A stretch of 39,478 bases of DNA from Phycisphaeraceae bacterium. Lineage in GTDB: Bacteria > Planctomycetota > Phycisphaerae > Phycisphaerales > Phycisphaeraceae. The stretch lies in the NCBI GenBank assembly GCA_002686995.1, contig NYZC01000184.1:1-39478 (forward strand), given 5' to 3'. The translations under genes were made by a program, and so were the position numbers. Positions 5,367 to 30,540 of the stretch are shown piece by piece. Numbering within the stretch: position 1 is the stretch's first letter; each line of letters begins with the position of its first letter. The notes under the pieces were generated by a model. The model was not told the DNA's origin, made no database searches, and saw nothing but the letters and a program-made list of their open reading frames with translations.

Positions 5367-8300
5367 TCAGCGCTGCCGGCGTGCCTCGATCCACCTTTCG
5401 ATCGACGTGTTCGACTCGTCGCCGACAGGTAATTTCCAGCCATGCCGCGTCAATGGGGCCGGATCGATCTTCGGAAGTGTCGATGCGCTCGCGGTCACGG
5501 CCATCGCGCCCCAGGTCTCCGGATCCAGCGCGTCGGCCGTGGGCCGTCCGTGGTCGGCGGCTCGCGCCGGTGGCGTCACCGAGTTCGTGAAGTTCTGCAG
5601 AATCGCCTGCAGGTCGTCGCTGCCCACGATGCCATCGAGGATGCCGTCCGGACCGGACACGTCGCCCTGCGACAGGTCGCCCACCGGCACCTGGCGCGTG
5701 AAGTTGGCGAGGACGATCTGCAGATCGTTGACACCGACGGTGAAGTCACCGTCCAGATCGCCCAGGATCGTGACGATCAGGCGCGGTGCCGTGACCGTGA
5801 ACGCTGCGGCGGCATTGGTCGCATCGGCGATCAGGGCGGTGTCGTGCGACTGGCCGGTCACGATCTCGAACGTGTAGACGCCCAGCGCGCCCGGCTGAAT
5901 CTCGTAGTCCACCCGGATCAGACCGTCCCGATGGTCAACGGCGAACGGCGACGCCGTGAAGTTGACGGTGCCGTGGTAGTACTCGGTCGGCAGGCGGTCG
6001 GTGTTGCCGCCTGCGTTGAGCGGATCGGGCGCGGTGGCCGCGGGCGAGACCGTGGCCTGGCCGCCGCCGGTCAGCGCCACCTGCGTCCCGGCGCCCGGCC
6101 CTTCCAGGCGCACGCGCACCGAGTAATTGAGCAGGCTCACCGAGGAGCCGTCGTCGGTGTCCAGGACGATGTCGACCGAACCCGTGCCGGCGGCGAAATC
6201 CGGCGTCGTCACCACCCGGTCTTGACCGGTCAGCGTGATCGTCGCGGCTGCGCCCTGTGCCGGGGCGCGCTGCGGCGCCGCGGCGGGCAGCACGCGCCCC
6301 AGGTCCGCGCGCAGCGGCTGCTTGTCGAGATCGTCCACGATCGCGTCGCCGTCGAGGTCGGCGAAGATCGAGTAGGCCGGATCTCCGGCGCTCGCCCCGA
6401 GGGCGTCGCGCACCGGTTTGATATCGAAGATCGTCGCCGCGCCGTCGCGGTCGACGTCGGCGCGAGCGGCGTCGAAGCGGAACTCGAAATCGCCGCCCGC
6501 CGTGAGGTCGCCCGACGGGAACTGGCTCACGCCGTCCACCCACTCTCCGTCCAGCGCCGCCGCGGAGTCGGTCGCGGTGACGTTCGCGTCGTCCAGCACG
6601 AGCAGCAATCGGTCGGTGGCGAGCGGTGACGAAAGCGTCCATACCGCCTGGAACGCTCCGGCCGGACCGGTTTCGGTCAGGAACCCACTGAATGCGTAAT
6701 CGTCGTTCGCATCCTCGACACCGTCCGGCCCCAGCGTTCCCCGCAGGAGAAGGTCGGACTGGACGACGTTCACCGGCTCGTCGAAGCGAATGATGACCTG
6801 GTCCGCATCCGTCCAGGGCAGGGGGTCGAGCTGCGCGACGGATCCGACCGGAATCGCGTATCCCCGGGCGCCGCCGGAACCGGCCGGTTCGAGTGCGTCG
6901 AGGAACGCGCCCGTCCACGCCGTGCCGCCGATGAGCACGCTCGTGACGCGCGGCGGGAGCGGCACCACGCTGACGGTGCCGTTGGACGTCGCCGATCCGC
7001 CGTCGCCGTCGGTGACGTCGAGCGTCACGGTGAACTGACCGCCGTCCGAGGGCACCCACGCCACCGTTTCGCCGACCAGCTGCGTCGTCGCTCCCGCGTT
7101 CGGTCCGGTCGTGAGCTCGATCGTCCAGGTGAACGTCAGCGGGTCGGCGGCGCCGGCCGGATCCGTCGCGGCGGCGCTGAGGTTCTGGGATGTGCCCTCC
7201 ATGCCGGTCGCGGACACGTTGAACTGCGTGATCGTCGGGTCGAGGTTGTCGACCAGCACGGTCTCGGTCGCGATGCCCGCATCCCCGTCATCGTCGTTCA
7301 CGGTCACCGTGGCCGTGAACGAGCCGCTCGGACTGTCGTCCAGGTAGGTGTGCATCAACGTGAACGACTGGCCTGTGGCGGCGCCGGAGCCGTAGGACAG
7401 CGTCTGCACGTTGGTCGGCGAAGTCGGATCGTCCCAGTCGACCTCGAGGGTGAAGGTGTCCGTGATGCCCACGTCGCTGAAAGAACCTGTCAGGGTGGCG
7501 GTGCCGGTCTCGTTGATCGTCGTCACGGGATCGAGCAGGACCGCCGGGGCGACGCCTTCGACGACGAGCCGCTGCTGCGCCGCGTTCTCGAACAGCGTGC
7601 CCCCTGTCGTCATCAGATCGACCTGGATCGTGTAGGCGAAATTGTCCCCGTACCCGTGGGTCACGTCGCCGGACGAGGTAAAGGACTCGATCGTGCCGTC
7701 TCCCCAGTTCACGATGATCTCGTCGACGTCCGCGGCGCCGGGTCCGGTCACCTGGCCCAGCGTCAACGTGTAGGTCTGCTGCTCCATGACCGTTGTCGCG
7801 CCGCTGATCGCGATGGTCGGAGCGATCACGGCGTTGACGACCACCGGCTGGACGCCGAATGTCTCGTTCGCGTCGGCCACGACGAAGTAGTCGCCGTCGT
7901 ACGCGAAGTTCGTGAACACGAGAAGGGCGTCGTTGACGCCACCGCTGTCATCGTCCGCGGCCAACTCGTTCCCGTCACGATCGATCAGGCGGACGACCGG
8001 ATCGATCAGGCTGTTCCCGACGGTGCGATCGCTGCGTAACGCCGCGGTCAGGGCGTCGCCCGGCGCGGCGGAGATTCGGAAGAAGTCGAGATCCCGGTCG
8101 AGTCCGTTGGCGATTGCGCCCGTCAGCGACGCGGCCCTGGTGTTCGCGATCAGGGGCACCAGGCTTCCGGCCAGGTCATTGGCAAACGGCAGGTCGGCGG
8201 CGCCGACGCCGGCTACGCCGTCATCGTTCGCCTCGGATTCCGCGGTCAGCAGATCCGACGCGCCGGGCCGGTTGATCGTGGTGGTCAGCGCGTAGGTTCC

Positions 8301-11300
8301 GACGCCACGAATCATCGAGACGCCGTCGGCAGGGTCGAGCACGAGTTCGGTGTCGACGACGAGGTAGTAGGAGCCATCGGCGGTGACGTTGAAGGTCAGC
8401 TCGGCGTCGCGATTGCCTTCCGCGATGTCGTCGTTCTGAGCCAGCTCGGCGCCGGTCGCGTCGACCAGCGTCAGCTTTGGATCCTCCAGCGTGCCGAGGC
8501 CGCCGTCGACGCCGCTGAGCGTCGCGGTGATCGATTCGCCGTTCAAGGCGCTGACCCTGTAGAAATCGGCGAAGTCGGTGAGCGCGTCGATCCGGGCATT
8601 GAACAGCGACCGGAAGTCGCGGTTGCCGATCGGCACGAAGTTCGGGTCGAGGTTCTCGGCCAGCGCAAGGTCGGCCACGAGGATGCCGTCCGTCCCGTCG
8701 TCGTTGGGCTCGTTCTCGCCGGTCAGCACGTTCGGGGCATCCGCGTCGGTCAGCTCGAGGTCGAGCCGATAGGCGCCGGTGCCCGGTCGTGAGGTGCCGT
8801 CCTCGTCGATGACGGAGACCGCGATCGTGTACGCGCCCGCGTTCTGGTAGGTGTGCGTCGCCTGCGACACGACACCGACCGTCTCCATGTTGCCGTCGCC
8901 CCATTCGATTTCAAACCCCGTGGGCGTCTCATCGCCCGGGTCGATCACGCTGCCCAGCTCGAGGGTGTACGTCGCGCCCGCGTCAACCGTCTCGGCGCCG
9001 GTCACGTCGACCGTCGGCGCGATGTTCAGCACCGTCACGTCGAGCGTCGTCGAAACCGAATGGGTCGCATCCTCATCCACCACCTGGACGGTGATCGTGC
9101 GCGTCGCATCGCCGTCGCTGTACTGGTGGCTCGCTACGAGCGCGTCGAATCGCAGCGGCGAACTCCGCACGTGATCGACGGTGAGCGTGTAATCGCCGGT
9201 GATCGACCCTGTCGAAGCGATGACGACGTACGCCGTCAGATCCGCGGCGAAGCTGCTGAATTCGAGCATGCCAGTGCTCGTTTCGGACGCAAGCATCGTC
9301 GGCGCTCCCGTGGCGCCGGGCGTCCAGATTTCGATCTCGGGCGCGGTGAGGGCGCCGGAGACGTTGATGGTCAGCGTATCGCCGTCCGCGACGGCGACCC
9401 GGTAGAAATCCTCGTCGGCCGCCGACCCGATGGAACCGGTGACCGAGGCGCCGTATCTCTCGCCCGCGCCGGTGTACGTCGAATCGAGCGTGAAAGCGCC
9501 GCGCAGATCGTCGGCCACCTCGAGATCGGCCTGCAGCGCGCCCGCCGTGCCGTCATCGTTCGGCTCGCCCTCGGTCGTGATGGCATCAAGCGGCACGTTC
9601 AGCGTGGTCGACGCGCCGTCCCCCCAGGCGACGACCACCTGCGCCGGAAAGTCGCGACCGGGATCGACCAGGTCGCTGATGGCCAGGTTGAGGTCGTTGC
9701 CCTCCTCCACGATCGGCATGCTTCCCTGCTCGGTGGTCAGGACGACGTCCGGGGTGACGTTTCCGATGTTCACGTTCAGGGGCGTTGCGTCGTGGGTCCC
9801 CTCTTCGTCGGTGGCCGTGGCGGAGATCGTGAATGCGCCGTCATCGACATAGAGGTGCGTCACACGGACCGCCGCTCCGCCGAAAAGCTGGGGAACGCTG
9901 CCGTCGCCCCAGTCGATCAGCCAGCTCTGCAGCGTGTCGTCGCCCGGATCGGACGCGCTCAGATCGAACGCGAGGAGCGTGCCCTCGTCCGCGGCGGAGC
10001 CGTCCGTGCTGATCCCCAGGGTCGGCGCGACGTCGTTGACCGCGATCGTCTTCTGCGCCGAGTAGGTGCCGTCACGGTCGGTCAGGCTCGCGGTGATTGT
10101 TGCCATGCCGTCGGCATCGTTGTCGGCATAGGTGTGCTCGACGGTGCCGGATGCGCCCTCGAGCGCGGACGTGGTGTTGTCGCCCCAGTTGATGATCCAG
10201 CGTGCCGGGGCCGTGCCCAGGTCGAGACCGTTTGCCGACAGCATGAGCGAATAGGGTGTTCCTTCGCTGGCGCTGTCGGAGCCGGTGAGCGCCGGCATCG
10301 GCACCACGTCGGTCACGACGATCTGCGTCAGAAGCTCCCGGAACCCGCCGTCCTTGTCGGTGATCGTGCCGAGGACGGGCACCGCGAGCGCGCCGTTGTT
10401 CAGCAGCGTCGCCGGCACGGTGAACGCCCGGTTGTCCGTGCCCTCGATGGCGTCCGTCAGATCGATCGTGCCGTCGTTGCCCACGTCGAGCGAAAGCGTG
10501 AACATGCTGTCCGCGCTGGACGGGTCGGAGACGCCCGTGAAGCTGACGGTGGCAGCTTCCGACTCGGTGACGGCATCGCCGGTGAGCGTGCCGGTCGGCG
10601 CTGCGTTCTCGACGACGAGCGTCACGGTCGAGAAGTTCGGGGTGCCGGGGGGCGAATCAAAAGGAATGAGCCCGATCGCCTCGGGAAATCCGAAGGTCGT
10701 TCGGGCATCCGCGAACAGGTCGAACGTGTATGTGCCGTCGTCATTGATTCCGACCGAGCCCAGCTGCGCCCATGTGATCGTGAACGCCTGGCCTGGGGTC
10801 GCCGTGAAATCCGCGGTCCCGCCCATGCTCAGGTCCTCACCACCGAACTCCACGAGCACGGCGTCGGCGTCGGTGGACCGGGGGGTGAAGACGAGGTCCT
10901 GGCCTTCCGAGATCGTGATCGGATCCGCGTCCACCGTCGGGACCGGCGGCATGATGGTGACGCCGACCTGGTCCGAGAAGGAACCGTCGTCGTTGACCCA
11001 GCTGACGTCGAGCGTGACGAAGCCGTTGATCTGCGCGAAGGTGTGCGTGAATACGAACGTCTGACCCACGGTCGCCACGTTGCCTGGCGCCGACAGCGGC
11101 GCCAGCGTATCCATCGTGCCGTCGTCCCAGGTCAGCGTGACCTGGCTGACCGGGTCGTCACCGGGATCCAGGATCGTCAGGGGAACCTGGAATGGCGATC
11201 CCGCAACCACGTCGAACACCTCGCCGGGCAGAGATGCCCGCGCCGCCTCGTCGGTGACCGTCAGCGTTCCGTGAGCGACGGCGACGTCGTTGATGCTGTC

Positions 11301-14300
11301 GGTCACCCGCACCGAGATCGGATAGACGCCGTCGTCGTCGATCGGCACGGCACCATCCGCGGTCACCGCCACGATCCGCTCCCATCCCGTCATCCCTCCG
11401 CTGAAGGAGAACACCGGATCCTCGCCGGTGGCGTCGTCGAAGAGGCCGTCGCCGTCAAGGTCCCACTCGACCGACGTGATCGTCGTATTCGGCTGCTTGC
11501 TGCCGGGGATCGGGGTCGAGGCGAAACTGATGGTGCTCCTGCCCTCCCCCGCCGTCGCCGCGGCGAGCGTGACCCGTGTCGGGACGAAGCCCGGGATGTC
11601 CTCGAATCCGTCGTAGATCAGCGTGCCGACGCCGGTCACGGTGGCCGTGCCCAGCGGATCGGACGGCTGGTTGATGCTGTGCGGGTTGCCGTCGGTGTTG
11701 TCCGGAAGGTTCACCGACCCGATGGCGCCGGGGTCGAGCGTGTCCATGCCGGACACGCCGTGCGCCTGGGCATCGACCGTCACGGTCGCGCCGACCGCGA
11801 TGCCGGGCATGTCGATGAACGCATGGTCATCGAAGTCGCCCAGCTCGGCCGAGACGCTCGACGTCGCCGCCAGCTCCGTGATCTCGAAGAGATCGGTTCC
11901 GTTGCCGGTCTTCACCGTCGTCGTCACCCCCGGGATCGCCATCGCGATGCGCACGGTCTGCGGCTGGGAGTCGGTGCCGAGGACGCTGTTCACGTGGAAC
12001 GTGCCGCCGCTGCCGGTGAAGCCGGACAGCGTGATCGTGTCGGCGCCGGCGTCACCGTTCAGCGTCGCGAGTGTCGCCGCCCCGACGACCCCCGACGCGT
12101 TGATCGTGTCCGCGTCGGCACCGGCGCTCACCGTGACCGTGCCGCCGAGCGCGCCGGAAAGGCCGATCACGTCGTTGCCCGCGCCGGCGTTCACCGTGTA
12201 AGGCGCGCTGAAACCGCCCAGGGCGAGGTTGTCGGCCCCGTCTCCGGTATTGACGGTGACGGATCCGGTCGCCGGCGCAGTCGTCTGGAAGATCGTGTCG
12301 GCGGCGGCGCCCGTGTTGACGGTGACCGCCTCCACGTTCGTGAAGCTCACGCCATGCGTGAGCGACGACGGCGTGCCGTCGATCGGCAGCCGCGCAACGC
12401 CCTGCCCGCCGCCGACGTGCAGCTCGGTGTCGGTCGCGGCGAGACCCCGCGCGTCGCCGATCGACGTGACCGCCTTGTCGAGCAACACCTGTTGGAGCGT
12501 GCCGTTCAGGTCGTACGCTGCGAGCGTGTCCTTCACGCTCGACGCGACGAATACATGGGATCCGTTGGCGACCATCGCCATCGGTGCGTCCAGGCCGGTC
12601 ACGCCCGGGCTGCCCTCGATGAGCGTGGCCAAGTGGCTGAATCCGGGCATCGGCGGGTTGTTGATCCCCGTCGCATCGACGATGTCGAGTCGATCGTCGG
12701 TCTGCGAAGCAACGAACAGCGTGCTGCCGGAATGGGCCATCGACACGTCGCCCTCGCCGATCCGCAGCGCGCTGAGGAAGAAAGGACCGCCGAAGGGGAA
12801 GCCCGGGTCGAACGTGGCGCCGAGGACGTCGTTGTCCGCACCGGGCACATCGACGGCCACGTACGGCAGGAAGAATCCCGACTGCACGACCTCGATGGCC
12901 TTGATCCGGTTGCCCGATCCCGCGCCGGGCAGGTCGACCGAGCCCTGGGAAACCGCGTCCTGCAGATCGTGAAGCTTCGTCGCCTCGGCCACCCACAGAT
13001 TGCGCACGCCCTGGCGCTCCCAGCCGACATCGATCGACGGCGACGTGGTCGCGAACTGCGCCGGCGTCGCGCCGATCCCGCCGGCTCCGTTGATCTCGAA
13101 GATGGCGGCCCCCGTCGTCGTCGTGACCGCCACCGCCCGGTTGCCCCCGTTGTGGCTGAAGGCCGAGAGCCGACTGCCCGCCGTGATGCCGAAGCCGCTG
13201 ACGCTGTCGATCTCGGCGAGCGTGGTCGGGTTGAGCACCCGCAGCGTGCCCGTGCCGTCGATGCCGTACAGAAAGCCGGCATCGCCCACCATCGCGCGGA
13301 GGTCGAAGTCGGGAAACAGGTCCGGCGCGCCCTTTGACGGCGAGAGCATCGCACGCTGACCATCGGTGGTCGTGACGCTGTCCGTGTCGATCGTGGCGGT
13401 CACCTGGCCGACCGCCTCCTCGACCGTCAGCGTGTCCGTGCTGGGCGTCGAGCCCGCCTTGATCTTCACCTCGTCCGCGCCCGTCGTGCGCATGAACGGG
13501 AGGAAGTCGTCGGTGCCGTTGCCGTCACGGTCGAAACGCAGGGCGCCGACGTCGGTCATCCATTTCGTCGCCACGGTGCTGGCGGCGTTGTCAACTTCGA
13601 GCAGTTCGACCCAGACCCGCAGATCGTCGTAAAGCGTGCCGTGGATCGCCGCGCCCGGCGAGGCGGGCACGCTGACGTCGACCACGTCGTCGCCGGCTCC
13701 ACCAACCACGTCGGTGCGCGCCCCGATCTCGACGACGTCCACTCGATCGTGGCCGCCCTGTCCTTCGATCAGCAGCGGCATCGCGACATCCGTATTGATC
13801 GTGATCGTCTCGTCGAATGCGGACCCGGTGACCTGCACCAGCCCGAGTCCCGTCATGGTGACGTCGGTCGTGCCCTGCACGTAGTTCAGGACGTTGCCGG
13901 TCTGGTCCGTCGGCTCGTCCTGCAGCGTCGCGGAAACGCCCGCGGTCGAGCCCGACAGGTCGACGACGAGCACGTCCACGGCGCCGCCCGTGACGTCGAG
14001 CGACTGGTTCACGCCGGTGACGGTGACGAGCGCCTCGCCCGCGCCGGACATGTCGATGGTCGTCACGAGGTTGCTCATCTGATCGATGTTCAGCGTGTAC
14101 GCCGCGCTCACGTCGTCTCGGCCGGTAAGGTTGACCGTGGGAAAACCGTTGTGGGTGATGGTGCTGCCGACGCTGGACGCGATCGAAGTGCCGCTGAGGT
14201 GGATCGTGGCGGCCGCGGACCGACCCGCCTCGTCGAACTGCACGAGGTCTCCCGAACCGCCGCCGCCGCTGAGCGACAGCGGGGCCTGCACCGCGTCGAT

Positions 14301-17300
14301 CGTCAGCGCGTTGCCGGCCAGCCCGTCGCCGAGCGTTACCGTATCGTCGCCGCCTCGCAGGTTGATCGTGGTGGGCTCGGTCAGCGAGCGAACGATCAGG
14401 TTGTCGCTTCCGGTCGTGTCGCCGAGGTCGAGCGTCGTCTGCACCACGCCGGTCGCGTCGAGCGCGACGTGTTGGATGCTCGATCGGGTCGAGGTGGGGG
14501 ATGCCAGCAGTTGCGACCCCTGAAGCAGCCAGGTGTTCGTGGAGGCCGAACCCTGGTTGTCGTGCGTGAAGCCGACGGTCTCGACGTTGACGGTGGTGAG
14601 CCTTCGGCCGTCGCTGGAGCCGGTGCTCGGCCCGACCATGGTCACGTCCACGGTTTCCGCGCCGGCGAGGTCCCGGCCGCCATCGACGAGCAGGTGGCGA
14701 TCGATTGAGCTGTGCGTGACCGAGTTCGCCGCCACGCCCAGCTCGAGCCTGACGGTCTCGACGGTGGCGTTGAAGGTCGGGTCGGTCGGCGTCCCAATGT
14801 TCGCGACGCTCGTGTTGCCGACGCTGATCGACGGGCGCGCGGTCGCGTCGTTGCGGGCGGCGTAGACGATCGTGTCGGCGCCCCCGTCGCCCGAGACGCT
14901 GACCGCGCCGGCGATGCCGCTGAGCACGCCGGCGCCGACGGTCATCGTGTCGTCGCCCTCGCCACCGTTGACGGCGGCCGTCGAGGTGGTGGTCTCGACA
15001 ATCAGCGCATCGCTACCCCCGCCGCCGGCCAGCAGCACGGGGGCGGACGCCGTGCGGACCGTGAACGTGTCGGAGGCGCTGCCGCCCGTGACTGCGGTCG
15101 CGGCCGAGAACGTCGAAAGCACCGTCACGTCGCCGCCGGCGGACGACTGGCTGACGTCGATCGTCAGGGAATGATTCGTGACGTCGATGTGCACCCGGTC
15201 CGTGACGCCGTCGCGCGCGACGACGACGTCGCCGCTGCTGCTCGCCGATGACGTGATGACCGGCGTGCCGGTGCCTCGTCCGAAGTCCTTGATCGTGATG
15301 ATGGAAGTGCCGGTCCCCGAAATATCGTGGTTGCCGTAGCCGACCGTGACCGCGTCGCCCGTGCCGCTGCCGGCGTCGATCGTGACGTCACCGTTCTCGA
15401 CGACGATCGTGTCGTTTCCGCTGCCCGCGTCGACCGAAAGGCTCACGTGATCCGTCGGGATCCGCGCGCCGTGCTCGACGGTGATCGCGTCACCGCTCCC
15501 GCCGCCACCGGTCACGATGGACACCGAGTCCACGGTGCGGTCCGTGTTCATCAGGCGCGTCATCAGCTTGTCGCTGCCCAGCGAGTTCGAGTTGGTATCA
15601 ATTTCGACGACAGCGCCCGTGCCGCTGCCCATGTCGTTGTCGGCGACGGCCCGGACCATGACCACGTCGGCCAGTTCGGCGCCTCCCGGCGCGGTAAGGC
15701 CGTTGAAGGTCGTGGTGCCGCCGGTCATCTCGATGTTGACGGTGTGGTCGCCGCCGGGCGCGTCGACCCGGTCGACGGTCACGCTGTCGCCGCCGTCGCC
15801 GAGCTGCAGGCTGACGTCCTCGACACCGATCGTCGTCACGGTGCCCGCTCCGGAAGCCGCGACGCTGAGCACCGGGCCGGTCTTGGTCACCGTGACGTCG
15901 TCCGCCAGCTCGACGGTCGTCGGCGAGGAAGGGCTGGCGAGGGTCGCGCCGACGACCTGCATGGTGGCGCCGCTGGCGGTCAGCTCGTCCATGCCGGCGT
16001 CCCCGTTGACCGTGTCGTCGCCGTCCGCGACCGACCACAGGATTCGATCGTTGTCGGCGCCGCCGTTGATCGCGTCACCCCCGAGGCCGCCCTCGAGCAT
16101 GTCGGCGCCCGTGCCGCCGTCGATCGTGTCCGCGCCGCCTTCGCCCATGATCATGTCCGCGCCGCCCCCGCCGATCAGCGAGTCGTTCGCCGATCCGCCG
16201 ACGATGACGTCGTCATCCTCGTCGCCTCGGAGCACCGCGGGCGCGGTTCCCTCGTAAACGAGCATGTCGTTGCCGGCGCCGCCGGAGACGTCGACCGGAA
16301 CGCCGACGGTCGAATCGAAATAGAAGTCGTCGTCCTGGGTTCCCCCGGCGGCGCTGATGCGCTTGACGTTCTCGAACCGCTGCTGTCCGCGCCCGACGAC
16401 GTCGCCGCTGGCCGAGTTGCGACCGACGAAGTTGACGGCAAGCGTCTCGCCGGCCGAGACGTCGTTCGGATCCGTCGGTCCCAGCGACACGACGGTGAAA
16501 TCCTCGAAGGTGCTGTTGTCGCTCGTCGACACGCTCCCGCCGGTCGTGTATTGCCGCGACGAGGCCGTGGTGCCGGCGTACAGGTTGAGCGTGCCGTCGG
16601 CCGCCACCTGGCCCAGCACCGGCGGCTCGTTGACGATGCCGTTGACCAGGTTGGCGTCGTCGTTGGGAAACTGGCCGCTGGCGATCGTGATCTTGATGAA
16701 CTGGATGGACCAGCTGAACTTGAGAAAGCGAAAGGCGGTGAGATCGAAGCTCATGCCGCCCTCGAAGACGAGCGAGCCGCCGACGTTCAGGAACCCGCCG
16801 CCGGTCGTGATCGCCTCGAAGACGGTCAGATTCGGCGCGTAGTCCGCGATCGCATCCAGCTCGAGACCGCGCACCTTGCCGTCGTAGGTGAACGGCGCGG
16901 TCGGACGGGGCACGGACGTCCCGTCGGAAAGCAGGAATTCGACGGTCCCGTCCGGCAGGTCGTTGAGGTCGAAGAGGATGGCGCCCACGAGACCGGCGCT
17001 GATCTTCGCACCGAAGGAGAGAATGTCCAGGTCGAGACCGATCTTCGCGAACGGTTTGATCGACAGCTTGAAGGCCAGCTCGGGGTTGTCCTGGCCGGGA
17101 TGGTTGAAGTACGACGCGATCTGCCCGTCGGCCGTATCGGGGTTGGCGCCGAACGCCTCGGGCAGCGCGCCGGCCGTGGGCACCCCGTCGGTCGTGCCGG
17201 TCGTGTTGTGATCGTCGAGGAAATGTCCGTTCTTGAGCGCGTCGATGTTGTCGGCCACGGACAGGGCCAGGAACGTCGTGTTGGTGAAGTCGAGCTGGTC

Positions 17301-17516
17301 GGTCAGCAGCCGGATGCCCCCGGAGTCGTATCCGTACTTGAAGTTCGTGGCGATCGAGAGCACGATCTCGATCCCGAAGCCGGCCTGGATACCGATCTTT
17401 TCGAGGAACGTCTTGACCCCGCCGGCCGGGAAGCCGAAGTCGATCTCGAACTTGAAGTCGACGCCGAGCGTGGTCGAGAAGCTCGCGAACTCGACGTCCG
17501 GTCCGCCGATCATCAT
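5367..17516 (-). CDS. Giant PKD/PPC/RTX-like/dockerin-like surface protein, downstream part (after in-frame TAG)
   Basis: 4049 codons open from the first ATG after the TAG at 17709-17711. It is in the same frame as the upstream LEPR-XLL ORF and is best read as the rest of one gene. Segments by genome position: GGxGxDxU-type calcium-binding repeats at 16010-16260; long beta-rich GSGxDxxxV repeats at 13640-16000; a propeller-like stretch at 12380-13330; more RTX-like repeats at 11760-12330; a PKD array (W[GD]DG...TF/TY signatures) at about 6960-11480. Three PPC-like modules interrupt the array, starting with EPNDDG or EANDDG near 9570, 8710 and 8235. A GTAW-type module (6480-6960) precedes two dockerin-like EF-hand pairs (6300-6470 and 5590-5770). 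The ATG at 17516 has no Shine-Dalgarno site, so independent translation is doubtful. An extracellular structural or adhesive role is inferred. Confidence 0.85.
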   Translation of the reverse strand: MMIGGPDVEFASFSTTLGVDFKFEIDFGFPAGGVKTFLEKIGIQAGFGIEIVLSIATNFKYGYDSGGIRLLTDQLDFTNTTFLALSVADNIDALKNGHFLDDHNTTGTTDGVPTAGALPEAFGANPDTADGQIASYFNHPGQDNPELAFKLSIKPFAKIGLDLDILSFGAKISAGLVGAILFDLNDLPDGTVEFLLSDGTSVPRPTAPFTYDGKVRGLELDAIADYAPNLTVFEAITTGGGFLNVGGSLVFEGGMSFDLTAFRFLKFSWSIQFIKITIASGQFPNDDANLVNGIVNEPPVLGQVAADGTLNLYAGTTASSRQYTTGGSVSTSDNSTFEDFTVVSLGPTDPNDVSAGETLAVNFVGRNSASGDVVGRGQQRFENVKRISAAGGTQDDDFYFDSTVGVPVDVSGGAGNDMLVYEGTAPAVLRGDEDDDVIVGGSANDSLIGGGGADMIMGEGGADTIDGGTGADMLEGGLGGDAINGGADNDRILWSVADGDDTVNGDAGMDELTASGATMQVVGATLASPSSPTTVELADDVTVTKTGPVLSVAASGAGTVTTIGVEDVSLQLGDGGDSVTVDRVDAPGGDHTVNIEMTGGTTTFNGLTAPGGAELADVVMVRAVADNDMGSGTGAVVEIDTNSNSLGSDKLMTRLMNTDRTVDSVSIVTGGGGSGDAITVEHGARIPTDHVSLSVDAGSGNDTIVVENGDVTIDAGSGTGDAVTVGYGNHDISGTGTSIITIKDFGRGTGTPVITSSASSSGDVVVARDGVTDRVHIDVTNHSLTIDVSQSSAGGDVTVLSTFSAATAVTGGSASDTFTVRTASAPVLLAGGGGSDALIVETTTSTAAVNGGEGDDTMTVGAGVLSGIAGAVSVSGDGGADTIVYAARNDATARPSISVGNTSVANIGTPTDPTFNATVETVRLELGVAANSVTHSSIDRHLLVDGGRDLAGAETVDVTMVGPSTGSSDGRRLTTVNVETVGFTHDNQGSASTNTWLLQGSQLLASPTSTRSSIQHVALDATGVVQTTLDLGDTTGSDNLIVRSLTEPTTINLRGGDDTVTLGDGLAGNALTIDAVQAPLSLSGGGGSGDLVQFDEAGRSAAATIHLSGTSIASSVGSTITHNGFPTVNLTGRDDVSAAYTLNIDQMSNLVTTIDMSGAGEALVTVTGVNQSLDVTGGAVDVLVVDLSGSTAGVSATLQDEPTDQTGNVLNYVQGTTDVTMTGLGLVQVTGSAFDETITINTDVAMPLLIEGQGGHDRVDVVEIGARTDVVGGAGDDVVDVSVPASPGAAIHGTLYDDLRVWVELLEVDNAASTVATKWMTDVGALRFDRDGNGTDDFLPFMRTTGADEVKIKAGSTPSTDTLTVEEAVGQVTATIDTDSVTTTDGQRAMLSPSKGAPDLFPDFDLRAMVGDAGFLYGIDGTGTLRVLNPTTLAEIDSVSGFGITAGSRLSAFSHNGGNRAVAVTTTTGAAIFEINGAGGIGATPAQFATTSPSIDVGWERQGVRNLWVAEATKLHDLQDAVSQGSVDLPGAGSGNRIKAIEVVQSGFFLPYVAVDVPGADNDVLGATFDPGFPFGGPFFLSALRIGEGDVSMAHSGSTLFVASQTDDRLDIVDATGINNPPMPGFSHLATLIEGSPGVTGLDAPMAMVANGSHVFVASSVKDTLAAYDLNGTLQQVLLDKAVTSIGDARGLAATDTELHVGGGQGVARLPIDGTPSSLTHGVSFTNVEAVTVNTGAAADTIFQTTAPATGSVTVNTGDGADNLALGGFSAPYTVNAGAGNDVIGLSGALGGTVTVSAGADADTINASGVVGAATLATLNGDAGADTITLSGFTGSGGTFHVNSVLGTDSQPQTVRIAMAIPGVTTTVKTGNGTDLFEITELAATSSVSAELGDFDDHAFIDMPGIAVGATVTVDAQAHGVSGMDTLDPGAIGSVNLPDNTDGNPHSINQPSDPLGTATVTGVGTLIYDGFEDIPGFVPTRVTLAAATAGEGRSTISFASTPIPGSKQPNTTITSVEWDLDGDGLFDDATGEDPVFSFSGGMTGWERIVAVTADGAVPIDDDGVYPISVRVTDSINDVAVAHGTLTVTDEAARASLPGEVFDVVAGSPFQVPLTILDPGDDPVSQVTLTWDDGTMDTLAPLSAPGNVATVGQTFVFTHTFAQINGFVTLDVSWVNDDGSFSDQVGVTIMPPVPTVDADPITISEGQDLVFTPRSTDADAVLVEFGGEDLSMGGTADFTATPGQAFTITWAQLGSVGINDDGTYTFDLFADARTTFGFPEAIGLIPFDSPPGTPNFSTVTLVVENAAPTGTLTGDAVTESEAATVSFTGVSDPSSADSMFTLSLDVGNDGTIDLTDAIEGTDNRAFTVPATLLNNGALAVPVLGTITDKDGGFRELLTQIVVTDVVPMPALTGSDSASEGTPYSLMLSANGLDLGTAPARWIINWGDNTTSALEGASGTVEHTYADNDADGMATITASLTDRDGTYSAQKTIAVNDVAPTLGISTDGSAADEGTLLAFDLSASDPGDDTLQSWLIDWGDGSVPQLFGGAAVRVTHLYVDDGAFTISATATDEEGTHDATPLNVNIGNVTPDVVLTTEQGSMPIVEEGNDLNLAISDLVDPGRDFPAQVVVAWGDGASTTLNVPLDAITTEGEPNDDGTAGALQADLEVADDLRGAFTLDSTYTGAGERYGASVTGSIGSAADEDFYRVAVADGDTLTINVSGALTAPEIEIWTPGATGAPTMLASETSTGMLEFSSFAADLTAYVVIASTGSITGDYTLTVDHVRSSPLRFDALVASHQYSDGDATRTITVQVVDEDATHSVSTTLDVTVLNIAPTVDVTGAETVDAGATYTLELGSVIDPGDETPTGFEIEWGDGNMETVGVVSQATHTYQNAGAYTIAVSVIDEDGTSRPGTGAYRLDLELTDADAPNVLTGENEPNDDGTDGILVADLALAENLDPNFVPIGNRDFRSLFNARIDALTDFADFYRVSALNGESITATLSGVDGGLGTLEDPKLTLVDATGAELAQNDDIAEGNRDAELTFNVTADGSYYLVVDTELVLDPADGVSMIRGVGTYALTTTINRPGASDLLTAESEANDDGVAGVGAADLPFANDLAGSLVPLIANTRAASLTGAIANGLDRDLDFFRISAAPGDALTAALRSDRTVGNSLIDPVVRLIDRDGNELAADDDSGGVNDALLVFTNFAYDGDYFVVADANETFGVQPVVVNAVIAPTIAISGATTVMEQQTYTLTLGQVTGPGAADVDEIIVNWGDGTIESFTSSGDVTHGYGDNFAYTIQVDLMTTGGTLFENAAQQRLVVEGVAPAVLLDPVTTINETGTATLTGSFSDVGITDTFTLEVDWDDPTSPTNVQTLSYGSGAATGQSFTLMHTYLDDSPSGSFTATVTVNDDDGDAGIATETVLVDNLDPTITQFNVSATGMEGTSQNLSAAATDPAGAADPLTFTWTIELTTGPNAGATTQLVGETVAWVPSDGGQFTVTLDVTDGDGGSATSNGTVSVVPLPPRVTSVLIGGTAWTGAFLDALEPAGSGGARGYAIPVGSVAQLDPLPWTDADQVIIRFDEPVNVVQSDLLLRGTLGPDGVEDANDDYAFSGFLTETGPAGAFQAVWTLSSPLATDRLLLVLDDANVTATDSAAALDGEWVDGVSQFPSGDLTAGGDFEFRFDAARADVDRDGAATIFDIKPVRDALGASAGDPAYSIFADLDGDAIVDDLDKQPLRADLGRVLPAAAPQRAPAQGAAATITLTGQDRVVTTPDFAAGTGSVDIVLDTDDGSSVSLLNYSVRVRLEGPGAGTQVALTGGGQATVSPAATAPDPLNAGGNTDRLPTEYYHGTVNFTASPFAVDHRDGLIRVDYEIQPGALGVYTFEIVTGQSHDTALIADATNAAAAFTVTAPRLIVTILGDLDGDFTVGVNDLQIVLANFTRQVPVGDLSQGDVSGPDGILDGIVGSDDLQAILQNFTNSVTPPARAADHGRPTADALDPETWGAMAVTASASTLPKIDPAPLTRHGWKLPVGDESNTSIERWIEARRQR

Positions 17517-17708
17517 GTCGAACAGCAGGCCGGGGTCGTCGAGGAAGGGAAAGGCGAAGCCCGCGCCACCGAAGAACAGACGGCTGGCCTTGACCTTCTT
17601 GCCGTCCGGATTGTTCAGGCGGTTGATCGTCTGCCGCAGAACCTCGTTGCCATGGTCGGCGTTCAGCCGGTGGAACCGGCGGCCCGTGGAATCGAAGCGG
17701 CCGGGCCC

Positions 17709-17711
17709 CTA
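17709..17711 (-). other. In-frame TAG interrupting the giant gene (codon 488)
   Basis: The ORFs at 17709-19172 and 5367-17516 are in the same frame (both high ends are 2 modulo 3) and are separated only by this TAG. The 64 codons between the TAG and the next ATG are open and protein-like (for example LFFGGAGFAFPFLDD), with no ATG, GTG or TTG among them. One base change (to TAT, TAC, CAG, GAG or others) would restore one frame of about 4600 codons. Confidence 0.9.
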
Positions 17712-19172
17712 TGACGATGTAAAGCCCCATTTCGTGCTGCCGATCGGGACCTTGCCGCCGCCCTGGGCGGACGACGTGAAATCCCCGGCCTCGAACGACG
17801 GCAGGTCGAGCAGCGCGTCGACCGGCTCGAGAAAGAACGAGTCCAGGGCGAGCAGCCCGCTGACGAGCTTCTGTTGGCCTGCGAGGGTCGCGCCGAGGGT
17901 GATCAGGTCCAGCAGCGACGGGCCCTGGCCGAGATTGAGCTTCTGAAACAGGTCGTCGATCCCGGGGATCGGATCCTTGAAGATGTCGACGATCGTCCCG
18001 TACGGAAGAAGGACGCCCTTGACGGCCGAGGTGGTCGGGCCGATGAACTCGGTGAAGAACTTCAGCACGTCGACCTGGGTGTTGCTGTAGGTCAGCTCGG
18101 CGCTGACGGTGTCGGTCGGACTCGTGATCGTGAAGCTCGGCCACGAGATCAGCAGGTCCGTCGTGAAATCCATGTCGATCGCGGGGTCGACGCCCGTGAC
18201 CAGCCCGCCAAAGTCAGGCACGGCGCTGAAATCGGCATCGAGGTGCGCCACCGCCGACCCGGTGATGTCGGTGTCGACGCCGAGGTCGGTGGACCATTGC
18301 GCGCTGGTCAGGCGACTGTCGCTGCCGCTCGTCGTCAGGTCGACGCTGTATGTGTGGTTGAACGTGGAGGCACTCGTGGCATCCTGCGTGAACAGCGATC
18401 CGAAGATGCCAAGCTTGCCGTAGCCGGTCAGTCCCGATCTCACCGACCCGGTCACGTTCACGGTCAGCTCGTCCGAGCCGTTGACGACCGTGCTGCTGTC
18501 CGACACGTCGATGAAGAAGGACGTGTCGGTGACGCCGATCACCAGATCGAGTGACCAGGTCACGCTGGCCGCCACCTGGCCCGCCTGTCCCAGCAGGATT
18601 TCGACAGCCGGGCGCTCGATCAGCCACAGGTCGAACGACTGGCCGCTGAGCGTCTGCGTCAGCGGCACGGAGAACTGCACCAGGTCCGACGCGATGCCGC
18701 CGCTCGTGGACACGTTCGCGGTCGTCGCGCCCAGGGTGGCGAATCGCTGGGCGATCTCCGCGCGGACCTGCTCGACCGTGCTCGAGCCGAAATCGAAGCC
18801 CTGGTTGCCGCCGATGGACCATGCATCCTCGATCCCGGCCGCGATCTGCCCGGCGGTGTGTGTCGCGAGCTGACGGCCGATCAGGGGCAGGTCGATCTCG
18901 AAGACGCCCTCGACGTTCGGCGCCGTGTTGTCGCCCGACAGCAACGTCTGGAGGATCGGAAACAGGTCGGCGCTGCCGTCGCCGCGGAGCCCCGCGTCAA
19001 GCAGGCCCAGGTCTGCAGACAGCAGCAGGCGCGGCTCGAGCCTGTCGAGCACGAAGGGTGACCGCTCGTGCGCGGGCCGCGCGATCTTCTGATGACGTCG
19101 AGCCGATCCGGATCGTCGAAGCCGACTGGTTGGTCGCCTGGACATACGATTTCCCCACCTTGAGGTAGACAT
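17709..19172 (-). CDS. N-terminal part of giant LEPR-XLL surface protein (ends at in-frame TAG)
   Basis: 487 aa as read. A basic N-terminus (residues 1-37) is followed by LEPRLLLSAD at 45-54, the LEPR-XLL motif found at the start of very large planctomycete and related surface proteins and thought to act in export or anchoring. The rest is beta-rich, alternating polar/hydrophobic sequence with no recognised catalytic motif. Two starts are possible. The ATG at 19172 has no clear Shine-Dalgarno site; the ATG at 19145 lies 7 nt after GGTGGGG and may be the true start. The frame stops at TAG 17709-17711 but continues open beyond it for another 12 kb, so this is probably the first tenth of a larger protein. 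A perfect inverted repeat lies in the leader at 19195-19230. Confidence 0.85.
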   Translation of the reverse strand: MSTSRWGNRMSRRPTSRLRRSGSARRHQKIARPAHERSPFVLDRLEPRLLLSADLGLLDAGLRGDGSADLFPILQTLLSGDNTAPNVEGVFEIDLPLIGRQLATHTAGQIAAGIEDAWSIGGNQGFDFGSSTVEQVRAEIAQRFATLGATTANVSTSGGIASDLVQFSVPLTQTLSGQSFDLWLIERPAVEILLGQAGQVAASVTWSLDLVIGVTDTSFFIDVSDSSTVVNGSDELTVNVTGSVRSGLTGYGKLGIFGSLFTQDATSASTFNHTYSVDLTTSGSDSRLTSAQWSTDLGVDTDITGSAVAHLDADFSAVPDFGGLVTGVDPAIDMDFTTDLLISWPSFTITSPTDTVSAELTYSNTQVDVLKFFTEFIGPTTSAVKGVLLPYGTIVDIFKDPIPGIDDLFQKLNLGQGPSLLDLITLGATLAGQQKLVSGLLALDSFFLEPVDALLDLPSFEAGDFTSSAQGGGKVPIGSTKWGFTSS

Positions 19173-25770: not shown

Positions 25771-27894
25771 GTGACAGACGTTCAGTCCATTGATGCGAAG
25801 ATTGATGCGAAGGATGCCGTCGACCGCGTGGACACGCGCCTGATTCTCGACGTGCTGGTCGAGCGCGGCCGGTGTCAGCGCGACGACGTCGTCTTCGAGT
25901 TCCTCGTCGATGGGGCGCGGCAGGTCGAGTCGTTGACGTACGGGCAACTCGACGAGCGCGTGCGGGCCGTCGCGGGAGAGATCGTGCAGAGGGATCTCGC
26001 CGGGCAGCGCGTCGTCCTGCTGGCGCCGCCCGGGCTCGAATTCATCTCCGGCTTCTTCGGGATTCTTCGGGCGGGCGCCGTCGCCGTGCCGACCTATCCG
26101 CCGACGTCGGCGCGACGGCAGTCTCTCTGGGCGCGCCTGCGGGCCGTCATCGCGGATTGTCGTCCGGAGGCGATCCTTACGTCGTCCGAACTGCAATCGA
26201 GCCTTTCCGCGCTGCTGCCGGATCGATCCGACGGGCAGCCGATTCCTCTGGTCGCGACGGACGCCCTGGCGAGGGCGCAGTCCACCGAGTTACCCGCGCT
26301 CCCGGCTGCGGACGACATCGCGTGCATTCAGTACACGTCGGGCTCCACCACCGAATCGTCCGGCGACGAGTCCGACCGGTACGCGGCCCGGGGCGTCGTG
26401 CTGACGCACGGGAACCTTGCCGCGAACACGAGTTTGATTCAAGCGGCGCTCGGAAGCAGTGAGCAGAGCCGTGGCGTGATCTGGCTGCCGCCGTATCACG
26501 ACATGGGCCTGATCGGGGGCATTCTGCAGCCGCTCTACTGCGGATTTCCGGTGACCCTGATGTCGCCGGCTGCGTTCATCCAGAAGCCGATTCGCTGGCT
26601 GGAGACGATCGCGCGCGTCGGTGGCACCATCAGCGCGGCACCGTGCTCGGCATACGAGATGTGTGTCGAACGCACGACGCCCGCGCAGCGTGAAGGGCTG
26701 GACCTGAGCACATGGGCGGTCGCGTGCAACGGGGCCGAGCCGATCGATGCGGGCACCGTCGAGAGGTTCATCGAGGCGTTCGCGCCGTGCGGTTTCCGGG
26801 CGGAGGCGATGTTCCCATGCTACGGGCTCGCCGAGGCGACGCTGATGGTGACGGGCAGTGAGCGGCAATCGTCACCTGTCGTTCGGTCGAGCGCGATCGA
26901 ATCGGCGAATCAGCTCGTCGGCAGCGGACGCGTCCAGGCGCCCTTTGCGCGGGACACGGTGTTCGTCGTCGATTCCGACCGGCGATACCCGGTCCCCGAT
27001 CGCGAGGAGGGGGAGATCTGGGTGCGCGGCCCGCATGTCGCGAAGGGCTATTGGAACCGTCCGGATCTCACCGAAACGTCCTTCGTCCCGGGTCTGGACG
27101 GCGTCGGTCCGGGGCCCTGGCTGCGGACCGGCGATCTGGGTTTCGTCGACGACGGCGAACTGTTCGTCACGGGCCGCACCAAGGACGTGATCATCGTGCG
27201 CGGCGTGAACCACGCCGCCGCCGACCTCGAGCGCACCGCGACGGGAGGCCACGAGGCCGTGGCTCGGTTCGGCGTCGCGGCGTTCGAAACCGACGTCGAC
27301 GGCCGGTCCGGCCCGGTGATCGTCGCCGAGCTCAAGCGTGATCGGCGCGACGCGGATCCCGATGAGGTGATTCGTGGAATCCGGCGCGCGGTGTCCGACG
27401 AGCACGAAATCGCGCTGCGCGTCGTCGCCCTCGTCCGACCCGGTGCGCTGCCCAGAACGCCCAGCGGCAAGCTGCAGCGGGCGGTGTGCCGCGAGGGCCT
27501 TCGGGCCGGCGACCTGGAGACGATCGAGATCTGGCACGGCACCTCGGAAGGCGAACCGGATGAAGGAGCAGCCTCGAAGCGCATCGACGAAGCGGTGCCT
27601 CGCACGGTCGAGCAGATCGAGCACTGGCTGGTGGCGCGCATGGCAGGTTTGCTGAAGGTGTCGATGGACGAGATCGAGCCCGGCGAGCCCTTCGCCCGGT
27701 ACGGCCTCGAATCGATCGACGCGGCGGAGCTGGCCATCGCGATCGTGGACAGATGGACCCTGGAGCTCCCGCCGACGGTGTTCTGGGATTACCCGTCCGT
27801 GGGCGAGCTGGCGCGGTTCATCGCCGAGCAGGCTGCGCCCCAGGCGAACGAGCCGAGTTCCGAGCCCGCGCCGACCGGCGCCGAACCGGTGTGA
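25771..27894 (+). CDS. Fatty acyl-AMP ligase (FAAL)-type protein with C-terminal carrier domain
   Basis: 707 aa from GTG at 25771, with GGGAG six bases upstream. Residues 20-600 are an ANL-superfamily adenylating domain of FAAL type: P-loop YTSGSTT (188-194), then GVVLTHGNL, WLPPYHDMGLIGG (238-250), CYGLAEATLM, and later RTGDLGFVDDGELFVTGRTKDVIIVRG. The core ends with TPSGKLQR near 570. Residues 625-690 are an acyl carrier domain with the phosphopantetheine site GLESIDA (Ser648). The layout suggests activation of a fatty or other acyl chain as the AMP ester and loading onto its own carrier. The P-loop is odd: about ten extra residues lie between STT and RGVV, without the usual proline. The downstream P450 (61-nt gap, same strand) is a likely partner. 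Confidence 0.88.
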   Translation: MTDVQSIDAKIDAKDAVDRVDTRLILDVLVERGRCQRDDVVFEFLVDGARQVESLTYGQLDERVRAVAGEIVQRDLAGQRVVLLAPPGLEFISGFFGILRAGAVAVPTYPPTSARRQSLWARLRAVIADCRPEAILTSSELQSSLSALLPDRSDGQPIPLVATDALARAQSTELPALPAADDIACIQYTSGSTTESSGDESDRYAARGVVLTHGNLAANTSLIQAALGSSEQSRGVIWLPPYHDMGLIGGILQPLYCGFPVTLMSPAAFIQKPIRWLETIARVGGTISAAPCSAYEMCVERTTPAQREGLDLSTWAVACNGAEPIDAGTVERFIEAFAPCGFRAEAMFPCYGLAEATLMVTGSERQSSPVVRSSAIESANQLVGSGRVQAPFARDTVFVVDSDRRYPVPDREEGEIWVRGPHVAKGYWNRPDLTETSFVPGLDGVGPGPWLRTGDLGFVDDGELFVTGRTKDVIIVRGVNHAAADLERTATGGHEAVARFGVAAFETDVDGRSGPVIVAELKRDRRDADPDEVIRGIRRAVSDEHEIALRVVALVRPGALPRTPSGKLQRAVCREGLRAGDLETIEIWHGTSEGEPDEGAASKRIDEAVPRTVEQIEHWLVARMAGLLKVSMDEIEPGEPFARYGLESIDAAELAIAIVDRWTLELPPTVFWDYPSVGELARFIAEQAAPQANEPSSEPAPTGAEPV
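25789..25812 (+). repeat. 12-bp in-frame tandem duplication in the FAAL N-terminus
   Basis: ATTGATGCGAAG occurs twice in a row and encodes IDAK-IDAK near residues 7-14 of the ligase. The length is a multiple of three, so the frame is kept. Confidence 0.95.
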
Positions 27895-27955
27895 TCTCGT
27901 CGTGCCACCACATGGCGCAGGACGACGTCGACGCGACACCCCCGCGGAGCAGACG

Positions 27956-29209
27956 ATGACACGAACCATCGCCGTCCGGCCTGATGCCCGGGACGACGGG
28001 CGCCCGGTATTCAATCCGCTGACCCCCGAATACCGGATGAACCCGCACCCGCTGCTGCACCGGCTGCGCCGCGAGGATCCCGTCCATCACAATCCGATCC
28101 TCGACGTGTGGGTCCTGACCCGTTACGACGACGTGCTCGACGCGATGCACGACGAGCGTTTCAGCGCCAGCGCGCAGCACTGGACGCACTACGAACGGTA
28201 CTTCCGTGGCCGTCTCGACGACGCGTCCAGCGCGCTCGCCCGCATCTACGGCCGATGGATGCTCCAGGTCGATCCGCCCGACCACACGCGCCTGCGCAGC
28301 GCCGTGTCGCGCTCCTTCACACCGAAGATCGTCGAGCAACTTCGCGGGGCGATCGAGAGGACCGTCGCGGCGCTGCTCGACGCCGTCGCGGATCGCGGCG
28401 CGATGGACTTCGTCGAGGACTTCGCCTACCCGCTGCCCATCATCGTGATCTGCGAACTGCTCGGCGTGCCCGAGGAGGACCGCGCCCGGATCCGCGCGTG
28501 GTCGGCGCGGCTGCTGCCCTCGTTCAGCCCGGCCCTGTCGCGGCGGGGTGCCGAGGATGCCGACGACGCGGTGCTGGCGCTGGAGGACTATTTTCGAGAC
28601 CTCATGCGTCGGCGCGACGGCGGCGCCCGCGGCAGCGATCTGGTTCGGGCGCTGGTCGACGCCGGTGAGTCGGCGCGACTCGATCCCCAGGAGCTTCTAA
28701 GCACCTGCGTGCTGCTGGTCTTCGCCGGTCATCTCAGCACCGTGCAGGCGATCGCCAACACGCTGGTCGCGCTGCTGGAGCATCCGACCCAGCTTGCGGC
28801 GGTGCGCGACCAACCCGACCTGGTCGCCGCGGCCGTCGAGGAGTCGTTGCGCTACGAGGCGCCGCTGCAGCTCGTGTACCGGACGACGCGCGAGCCGGTG
28901 TCGGTGCGCGGCGTGCCGATCGATGCGAACCGGATGGTGTTTCTCTCGCTCGTCGCCGCCAACCGGGATCCGGAGCATTTCCCGGATCCGGACACCTTCG
29001 ACATCTCCCGCGACAATCGTCATCACCTTGCGTTCGGTCACGGCATTCACTTCTGCGCCGGCGCCGCACTGGCCCGGCTGGAAGCCCGGATCGCGATCGA
29101 CGCGGTCCTGCGCCGATTCGACGTCCTGCACCTCGACCGGTCCGGCCTCGAGCGCGAGCCGAGCCTGATCCTCCGGGGCCTGACGCGGGTTCCGGTGCGC
29201 TGGACCTGA
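27956..29209 (+). CDS. Cytochrome P450 with atypical I-helix, partner of the FAAL gene
   Basis: 417 aa from the ATG at 27956, which lies six bases after CGGAG. An in-frame extension to 27902 lacks such a site. ExxR is E296-S-L-R299, and the heme loop FGHGIHFCAG has Cys367. The I-helix reads AGHLST (257-262) where most P450s, including the one at 4068-5309, have AGH-E/D-T-T. The acidic residue is therefore Leu260 and the adjacent Thr is Ser261. That pair normally delivers protons for O-O cleavage, so chemistry or partner requirements may differ. It has the same architecture as the first P450 and is probably a distant relative. Its position after the ligase/carrier gene suggests a carrier-bound or free acyl substrate; this is inference. 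Confidence 0.9.
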   Translation: MTRTIAVRPDARDDGRPVFNPLTPEYRMNPHPLLHRLRREDPVHHNPILDVWVLTRYDDVLDAMHDERFSASAQHWTHYERYFRGRLDDASSALARIYGRWMLQVDPPDHTRLRSAVSRSFTPKIVEQLRGAIERTVAALLDAVADRGAMDFVEDFAYPLPIIVICELLGVPEEDRARIRAWSARLLPSFSPALSRRGAEDADDAVLALEDYFRDLMRRRDGGARGSDLVRALVDAGESARLDPQELLSTCVLLVFAGHLSTVQAIANTLVALLEHPTQLAAVRDQPDLVAAAVEESLRYEAPLQLVYRTTREPVSVRGVPIDANRMVFLSLVAANRDPEHFPDPDTFDISRDNRHHLAFGHGIHFCAGAALARLEARIAIDAVLRRFDVLHLDRSGLEREPSLILRGLTRVPVRWT

Positions 29210-29249
29210 GGTCGAAGCGCCGACGATAAAAATATTCCGACATCTCCTG

Positions 29250-29277
29250 TTGACTCGGCGCGGATTGATGAGATAAA
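29250..29277 (+). promoter_or_regulatory. Sigma70-like promoter for the second PEP-CTERM gene
   Basis: TTGACT (29250-29255), a 16-bp spacer and GATAAA (29272-29277) match the -35 (5/6) and -10 (4/6) consensus. An A/T-rich stretch (29225-29237) lies upstream. It would give a leader of about 150 nt before the ATG at 29432. I see no second gene in that leader. Confidence 0.5.
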
Positions 29278-29431
29278 TAGCGCGTTGGGCTAAGTGAGTT
29301 CTCGAAGAATGTGAAGCCGGAGCACGGTGCGTTGGCGCTACGCCTGTTGCGTCGCTCCAAGGGACGGTTTCGCGGGCGCGCGGTGCGCGAACGAGCACTC
29401 AATCATGCGAAAGCCCGTGGGAGGTGCGCAC

Positions 29432-30414: not shown

Positions 30415-30441
30415 CGCCGTGAAGCACAATGATTCTCCCAC

Positions 30442-30472
30442 GAGCCCGCGGCCGACCGGCCGCGGGCTCTTT
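30442..30472 (+). terminator. Intrinsic terminator after the second PEP-CTERM gene
   Basis: GAGCCCGCGGCC (30442-30453), a GACC loop and GGCCGCGGGCTC (30458-30469) make a perfect 12-bp stem followed by TTT. It begins 28 bp after the stop codon at 30414. Confidence 0.88.
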
Positions 30473-30505
30473 CATGCGCCCGGACCGGCTTCCATGGTGC
30501 GCGAC

Positions 30506-30540
30506 TTGACACCCGACAGGCCACCGCTGACACTCCCCGC
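30506..30540 (+). promoter_or_regulatory. Promoter-like TTGACA-N17-GACACT abutting pyrC (candidate leaderless start)
   Basis: A perfect TTGACA (30506-30511), 17-bp spacer and GACACT (30529-30534) end six bases before the pyrC ATG, and there is no Shine-Dalgarno site. The block CTGACACTCCCC (30527-30538) and spacing match those upstream of the 648-aa gene. Transcription would start at or near the A of ATG, giving a leaderless mRNA; this is inference. Confidence 0.5.

What the first reader, a model, noticed from the sequence alone, without database searches (positions are those of the whole stretch)
17709..17711. One in-frame TAG splits an otherwise intact giant gene of about 4600 codons
The LEPR-XLL N-terminal ORF and the 4049-codon ORF share one frame, and the only interruption in 13.8 kb is TAG at codon 488. 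The 64 codons after it are open and protein-like but offer no start codon or ribosome-binding site. Without readthrough the 12-kb remainder would lack the N-terminal export motif. An old null allele would have gathered more lesions, so this is a recent mutation, a sequencing error, or stop-codon readthrough controlling a surface protein.
Basis: partly seen in the sequence, partly recalled or inferred. Interest (0 to 1): 0.7.

Follow-up and report, generated by a model that had tools for sequence, protein, structure and literature searches.

The report
Recent nonsense mutation in giant gene
A very long bacterial surface-protein gene is cut by one recent stop codon; related giant genes in the same genome carry similar single lesions, so this looks like ordinary gene breakage or polymorphism, not a special way of reading the genetic code.

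Summary
On the minus strand, TAG at 17709-17711 is codon 488 and the only internal stop in a 4,602-codon frame (19172-5367). The next possible start is 64 codons on, inside a conserved motif.

Homologues show one gene. Six related loci (a 44% paralogue on contig C312, plus Phycisphaeraceae and Accumulibacter MAGs) cross the site in one open frame. The TAG sits in an unconserved linker.

Programmed readthrough or recoding is not supported. TAG ends about a quarter of 833 coding segments in 1.70 Mb of this MAG, including genuine ends such as flgB and fliR. No CUA-anticodon tRNA, no PylS and no unusual structure after the TAG were found. RF1 was not found, but the MAG is incomplete and the TAG-ended genes require it.

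The same genome holds further large secreted-protein genes with one lesion each: C312 (TAG), C162 (TGA), C401 (TGA), C418 (frameshift), probably C152 (frameshift). No in-frame stop lesion was recognised in about 1.1 Mb of ordinary genes. Lesions of several kinds, one per gene, in giant genes point to recent loss-of-function alleles. Consensus error remains possible without reads. General low-level leakiness is not excluded.

The parts
5367..19172 (-). giant gene frame, 4,602 codons including the internal TAG and the terminal TGA
   Evidence: only two stops in frame against 142 and 32 in the other frames; homologues collinear
17709..17711 (-). in-frame TAG, codon 488: the lesion
   Evidence: sequence; absent from all six homologues that cross the site
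17712..19172 (-). N-terminal ORF, 487 codons before the TAG
19005..19055 (-). LEPR-XLL motif, residues 40-56
   Evidence: NF012209, 21.4 bits, cut-off 17
5367..17708 (-). remainder after the TAG, 4,113 codons plus terminal TGA
17514..17516 (-). first possible start codon after the TAG (ATG); judged not a real start
   Evidence: inside a conserved block, no ribosome-binding site
17496..17558 (-). conserved block FAFPFLDDPGLLFDMMIGGPD after the linker
   Evidence: alignment of homologues
16122..16226 (-). RTX calcium-binding repeats (best stretch)
   Evidence: PF00353, 29.1 bits
9786..10007 (-). PKD domain
   Evidence: PF00801
8787..9026 (-). PKD_4 domain (best stretch)
   Evidence: PF18911, 91 bits
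8352..8567 (-). PPC domain
   Evidence: PF04151

Best explanation
The TAG is a recent single-base nonsense mutation in a giant LEPR-XLL surface-protein gene. Ribosomes stop there and release a fragment of about 487 residues. The 4,113-codon remainder has no usable start of its own and would lack the N-terminal LEPR-XLL region. In the cells this contig represents, the gene is therefore a young null or strongly reduced allele, fixed or segregating in the population. Several other large secreted-protein genes of the same genome carry comparable single lesions, which suggests that these probably dispensable genes are often broken one hit at a time. Shown: the frame, the intact homologues, TAG's normal role as stop in this genome, and the further lesions. 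Inferred: that the base is real, that the allele is recent, and that no protein is made from the remainder.
For: One gene: six homologous loci (C312, L102, L103, L104, L105, L107) cross the site without a stop in a single open frame. TAG is a stop here: it ends 206 of 833 coding segments in 1.70 Mb, including flgB before flgC and fliR before flhB, and one tail-collar paralogue on C214 ends with TAG at the residue where its neighbour ends with TGA. Lesions are not TAG-specific: C312 TAG, C162 TGA with paralogue C305 open through it, C401 TGA with G012 open through it, C418 frameshift with C422 and C68 in one frame, C152 frameshift by coding potential. All four in-frame nonsense lesions recognised lie in large secreted-protein genes, chance about 0.004 if spread evenly over coding bases. 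Recent: no second lesion in 12.3 kb, a 95% bound of about 1.4% neutral divergence from stops alone; GC3 unchanged. One lesion per gene is what random hits predict: about 0.5 genes with two expected among some 31.
Against: No reads and no second strain are available, so a consensus error cannot be separated from a real base. No congener is held and the nearest homologues are 44% or less identical, so dN/dS on either side of the stop cannot be measured. Lesions in ordinary genes were judged by coding potential and by eye and some may have been missed; frameshifts in ordinary genes were not surveyed. Leaky termination would also leave the downstream frame intact.
Confidence: 0.68

Rival explanations
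1. The TAG is a consensus or assembly error in the MAG; the organism's gene is intact.
For: The sequence is an incomplete, 446-contig MAG with 5.5% contamination; all six homologues are open at the site; several large genes show single lesions.
Against: Only about 1.7% of random base changes in this gene make a stop, so four nonsense errors would imply a few hundred wrong bases in the surveyed coding sequence, and they should then hit ordinary genes too, where none was recognised in about 1.1 Mb. That comparison rests on four events and on partly manual calls.
Confidence: 0.2
2. The stop is read through at a low rate (near-cognate decoding or general leaky termination), so a small amount of full-length surface protein is made.
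For: The downstream frame is intact; at the three other in-frame stops homologues carry Q, W and W, residues that near-cognate decoding of UAG and UGA could insert; in-frame stops kept in conserved bacterial genes have been read as frequent readthrough (PMC7918605).
Against: TAG is a normal stop in the genome; no suppressor tRNA, no PylS, no stimulatory fold, no stop at this site in any homologue; frameshifts occur in the same gene class; Q and W codons are also one transition from TAG and TGA, so mutation predicts the same residues.
Confidence: 0.08
3. TAG is a sense codon in this organism after loss of RF1.
For: RF1 was not found in the MAG; two giant genes carry in-frame TAG.
Against: 206 of 833 coding segments end in TAG, several at homology-supported ends; no CUA tRNA; every relative at least 90% complete has RF1 and those without a strong hit are incomplete; two further in-frame stops are TGA.
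Confidence: 0.02
4. Two genes: the 12-kb remainder is translated from its own start.
For: An ATG opens a 4,049-codon ORF at 17516.
Against: The ATG lies inside a conserved block and has no recognisable ribosome-binding site; the 64 codons before it are coding-like and no homologue starts there.
Confidence: 0.02

Closest known systems
Giant (huge) extracellular proteins of Planctomycetota, LEPR-XLL N-terminus with RTX, PKD and similar repeats
   Same: LEPR-XLL motif, RTX repeats, PKD and PPC domains, several thousand codons. Huge proteins with HemolysinCabind and Dockerin_1 domains are reported as frequent in Planctomycetota (PMC11573180).
   Different: This copy is interrupted by an in-frame TAG; no Dockerin_1 hit was found for this gene.
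In-frame stop codons in otherwise conserved bacterial genes (Belinky et al. 2021, PMC7918605)
   Same: One in-frame stop with the downstream frame intact; that survey finds most such stops short-lived, roughly like SNPs.
   Different: No close relative is available here to measure dN/dS or persistence.
TAG recoding (code 15 in phages, pyrrolysine in archaea and some bacteria)
   Same: An in-frame TAG in a long gene.
   Different: Needs a suppressor or pyl tRNA, PylS or loss of TAG as a stop; none was supported.

Membership tests
LEPR-XLL giant surface protein | LEPR-XLL motif near the N-terminus | tested here: met
   NF012209, 21.4 bits against a cut-off of 17, residues 40-56
LEPR-XLL giant surface protein | long repeat-rich extracellular architecture | tested here: met
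   RTX, PKD, PKD_4 and PPC hits over 4,113 codons
LEPR-XLL giant surface protein | export to the cell surface | not testable with these tools
   inferred from domains only
RTX haemolysin family | match to the family model above its cut-off | tested here: not met
   NF033943 37.6 bits against a cut-off of 1000; only generic calcium-binding repeats match
Recently disrupted gene (young null allele) | homologues open through the lesion | tested here: met
   six loci without a stop at the site
Recently disrupted gene (young null allele) | few or no further lesions, coding composition kept | tested here: met
   no second lesion in 12.3 kb; GC3 0.895
Recently disrupted gene (young null allele) | lesion present in the organism's DNA, not an error | not testable with these tools
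   no reads or second strain available
Programmed or suppressor-mediated TAG readthrough | suppressor (CUA) tRNA or pyrrolysine system | tested here: not met
   no CUA anticodon among ARAGORN calls at the tRNA places; no PylS; the MAG is incomplete
Programmed or suppressor-mediated TAG readthrough | stimulatory structure after the stop | tested here: not met
   RNA fold of the 100 nt from the TAG on is no better than shuffles, z -0.43
Programmed or suppressor-mediated TAG readthrough | stop conserved at the same site in homologues | tested here: not met
   no stop at the site in any homologue
Programmed or suppressor-mediated TAG readthrough | full-length protein made | not testable with these tools
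   needs proteomics or ribosome profiling
Alternative code with TAG as sense | TAG not used to end genes | tested here: not met
   206 of 833 coding segments end in TAG; flgB, fliR and a tail-collar gene end there

The most novel reading that the evidence does not exclude
This organism tolerates generally leaky termination at UAG and UGA, and its giant surface-protein genes carry single in-frame stops that hold full-length protein at a low level, as a loose form of expression control.
Probability: 0.06. Interest if true: 0.6.

Novelty: new member of a known kind. Interest (0 to 1): 0.22.

Why it matters
It warns that giant planctomycete genes in MAGs can be interrupted by single lesions, which split one gene into two annotated proteins and can be mistaken for recoding. 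If the lesions are real, giant surface-protein genes in this lineage break more often per base than ordinary genes, which read mapping in the source metagenome could test directly. It is also a worked check of whether TAG is a stop in an uncultured genome.

Tried and rejected
The first scan of genome contigs with the window protein found nothing; the second, with an alignment, gave six loci. A search of 400 genomes of the order found no closer homologue. TAG reassignment was considered, because two giant genes have in-frame TAG and RF1 was not found, and rejected. Several apparent in-frame continuations turned out to be neighbouring genes in one frame (flgB-flgC, fliR-flhB and others). C280, C334 and C323 were adjacent LEPR-XLL genes, not split ones. 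An AlphaFold model of codons 30-935, with the TAG read as Q, had mean pLDDT 49 and was not used for a fold search; the TAG residue falls in a very low-confidence coil. dN/dS between window and paralogue was not computed because at 44% identity synonymous sites are saturated. A paper search for LEPR-XLL found only passing mentions.

Full report
Observation. The window is contig C184 of a 7.8 Mb MAG in 446 contigs, 87.6% complete and 5.5% contaminated. On the minus strand a frame of 4,602 codons runs from 19172 to 5367. Its only stops are the TAG at 17709-17711 (codon 488) and the terminal TGA, while the two other frames of that strand hold 142 and 32 stops. GC3 is the same on both sides of the TAG. 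The next start codon is the ATG at 17514-17516, 64 codons on, without a recognisable ribosome-binding site.

What the gene is. The N-terminal ORF holds a LEPR-XLL motif above its curated cut-off. The part after the TAG has RTX calcium-binding repeats, PKD, PKD_4 and PPC domains. The RTX haemolysin model matches only weakly, 37.6 bits against a cut-off of 1000, so this is a repeat-rich surface protein and not a member of that family. Huge proteins with such domains are known to be frequent in Planctomycetota (PMC11573180).

One gene, not two. A paralogue on contig C312 of the same genome is 44% identical and collinear across the site. Homologues in Phycisphaeraceae and Accumulibacter MAGs also cross it in one open frame; six loci cross the site and none has a stop there. 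The TAG falls in a gap-rich, unconserved linker between two conserved blocks, so homologues do not agree on a residue there, and the first downstream ATG lies within the conserved block FAFPFLDDPGLLFDMMIGGPD. No homologue ends at the site and starts again.

Is TAG a stop in this genome? Coding segments end in TGA 560 times, TAG 206 times and TAA 67 times. In an 0.81 Mb subset the lengths open beyond TAG and beyond TGA had the same median, 36 codons. Apparent coding continuations in ordinary genes read as neighbouring genes in one frame, for example flgB before flgC and fliR before flhB, both ending in TAG. A tail-collar paralogue on C214 ends in TAG at the residue where its neighbour ends in TGA. 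RF1 was not found, but every relative at least 90% complete has a strong hit and the relatives without one are incomplete. Since RF2 does not read UAG (established knowledge), the TAG-ended genes imply that RF1 exists and is missing from the assembly. ARAGORN named no CUA anticodon; one tRNA-like place on C433 was not called and looks like a truncated tRNA. PylS is absent. The RNA from the TAG on folds no better than shuffles.

Other lesions. The C312 paralogue has its own single in-frame TAG, with about 800 codons beyond it that are homologous to the window gene; the window protein has Q at that position. C162 has a TGA between open frames of 3,313 and 7,121 codons, where paralogue C305 is open and has W. 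C401 has a TGA between 1,048 and 1,274 codons, where a homologue in G012 is open and has W. C418 has a frameshift; homologues C422 and C68 keep one frame. C152 probably has a frameshift, by coding potential only. No in-frame stop lesion was recognised in about 1.1 Mb of ordinary coding sequence. If nonsense lesions were spread evenly over coding bases, all four in the giants would have a chance of about 0.004. That figure rests on four events, on a choice of contigs that favoured giant genes, and on partly manual calls, so it is suggestive only.

Interpretation. Nonsense and frameshift lesions, one per gene, in a class of large and probably dispensable genes are what recent random loss predicts. 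With six lesions over some 31 large genes, about 0.5 genes with two lesions are expected, so single lesions are not a sign of protection. The absence of a second stop in 12.3 kb bounds the age at about 1.4% neutral divergence. The residues aligned with the other in-frame stops (Q, W, W) are one transition from TAG or TGA, so they fit mutation as well as misreading. The best explanation is a young null allele. Consensus error is the main rival and needs reads to settle. Readthrough is unlikely but not excluded; published work argues that in-frame stops in bacterial genes are common and mostly short-lived (PMC7918605).

Limits. No reads, no second strain and no congener were available. The survey covers about 22% of the MAG. 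Frameshifts in ordinary genes were not counted. The structure model of the linker region was poor and carries no weight.

Noticed in passing
L101 6589-6591 (C312 9847-9849), - strand: The 44% paralogue of the window gene has its own single in-frame TAG; about 800 further codons, homologous to the window gene, follow in the same frame.
   Followed up: yes
L101 18333-19814 (C312), upstream of the paralogue: The C-terminal part of a third related gene lies directly upstream of the C312 paralogue, a tandem arrangement.
   Followed up: no
C162 16781-16783, + strand (L132): An in-frame TGA splits frames of 3,313 and 7,121 codons; paralogue C305 is open through the site.
   Followed up: yes
C401 14257-14259, + strand (L170): An in-frame TGA splits frames of 1,048 and 1,274 codons; a 53% identical homologue in G012 is open.
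   Followed up: yes
C418 (L167) and C152 (L129): Giant genes split by frameshifts; C418 is supported by homologues on C422 and C68, C152 by coding potential only.
   Followed up: partly
whole MAG G000: RF1 (prfA) was not found, only RF2 on C333; several incomplete relatives also lack a strong RF1 hit. Probably assembly incompleteness.
   Followed up: partly
L103, L104, L105: Accumulibacter MAGs carry about 30% identical relatives of the N-terminal module in long open frames, far from Phycisphaeraceae; gene transfer or mis-binning not tested.
   Followed up: no
L100 (C433 19075-19155): A weak tRNA hit that ARAGORN did not call; looks like a 5'-truncated tRNA, possibly an integration scar.
   Followed up: no
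32449-39477, - strand: A second giant frame (2,342 codons, cut by the contig end) with no Pfam match and GC3 0.938.
   Followed up: partly
25771-31890, + strand: AMP-binding enzyme with carrier domain, cytochrome P450 and amidohydrolase genes close together; could be a small biosynthetic cluster.
   Followed up: no
87-4071, + strand: FAD-linked oxidase, FAD-binding and Fe-S/CCG proteins in a row, resembling glycolate oxidase subunits GlcDEF.
   Followed up: no
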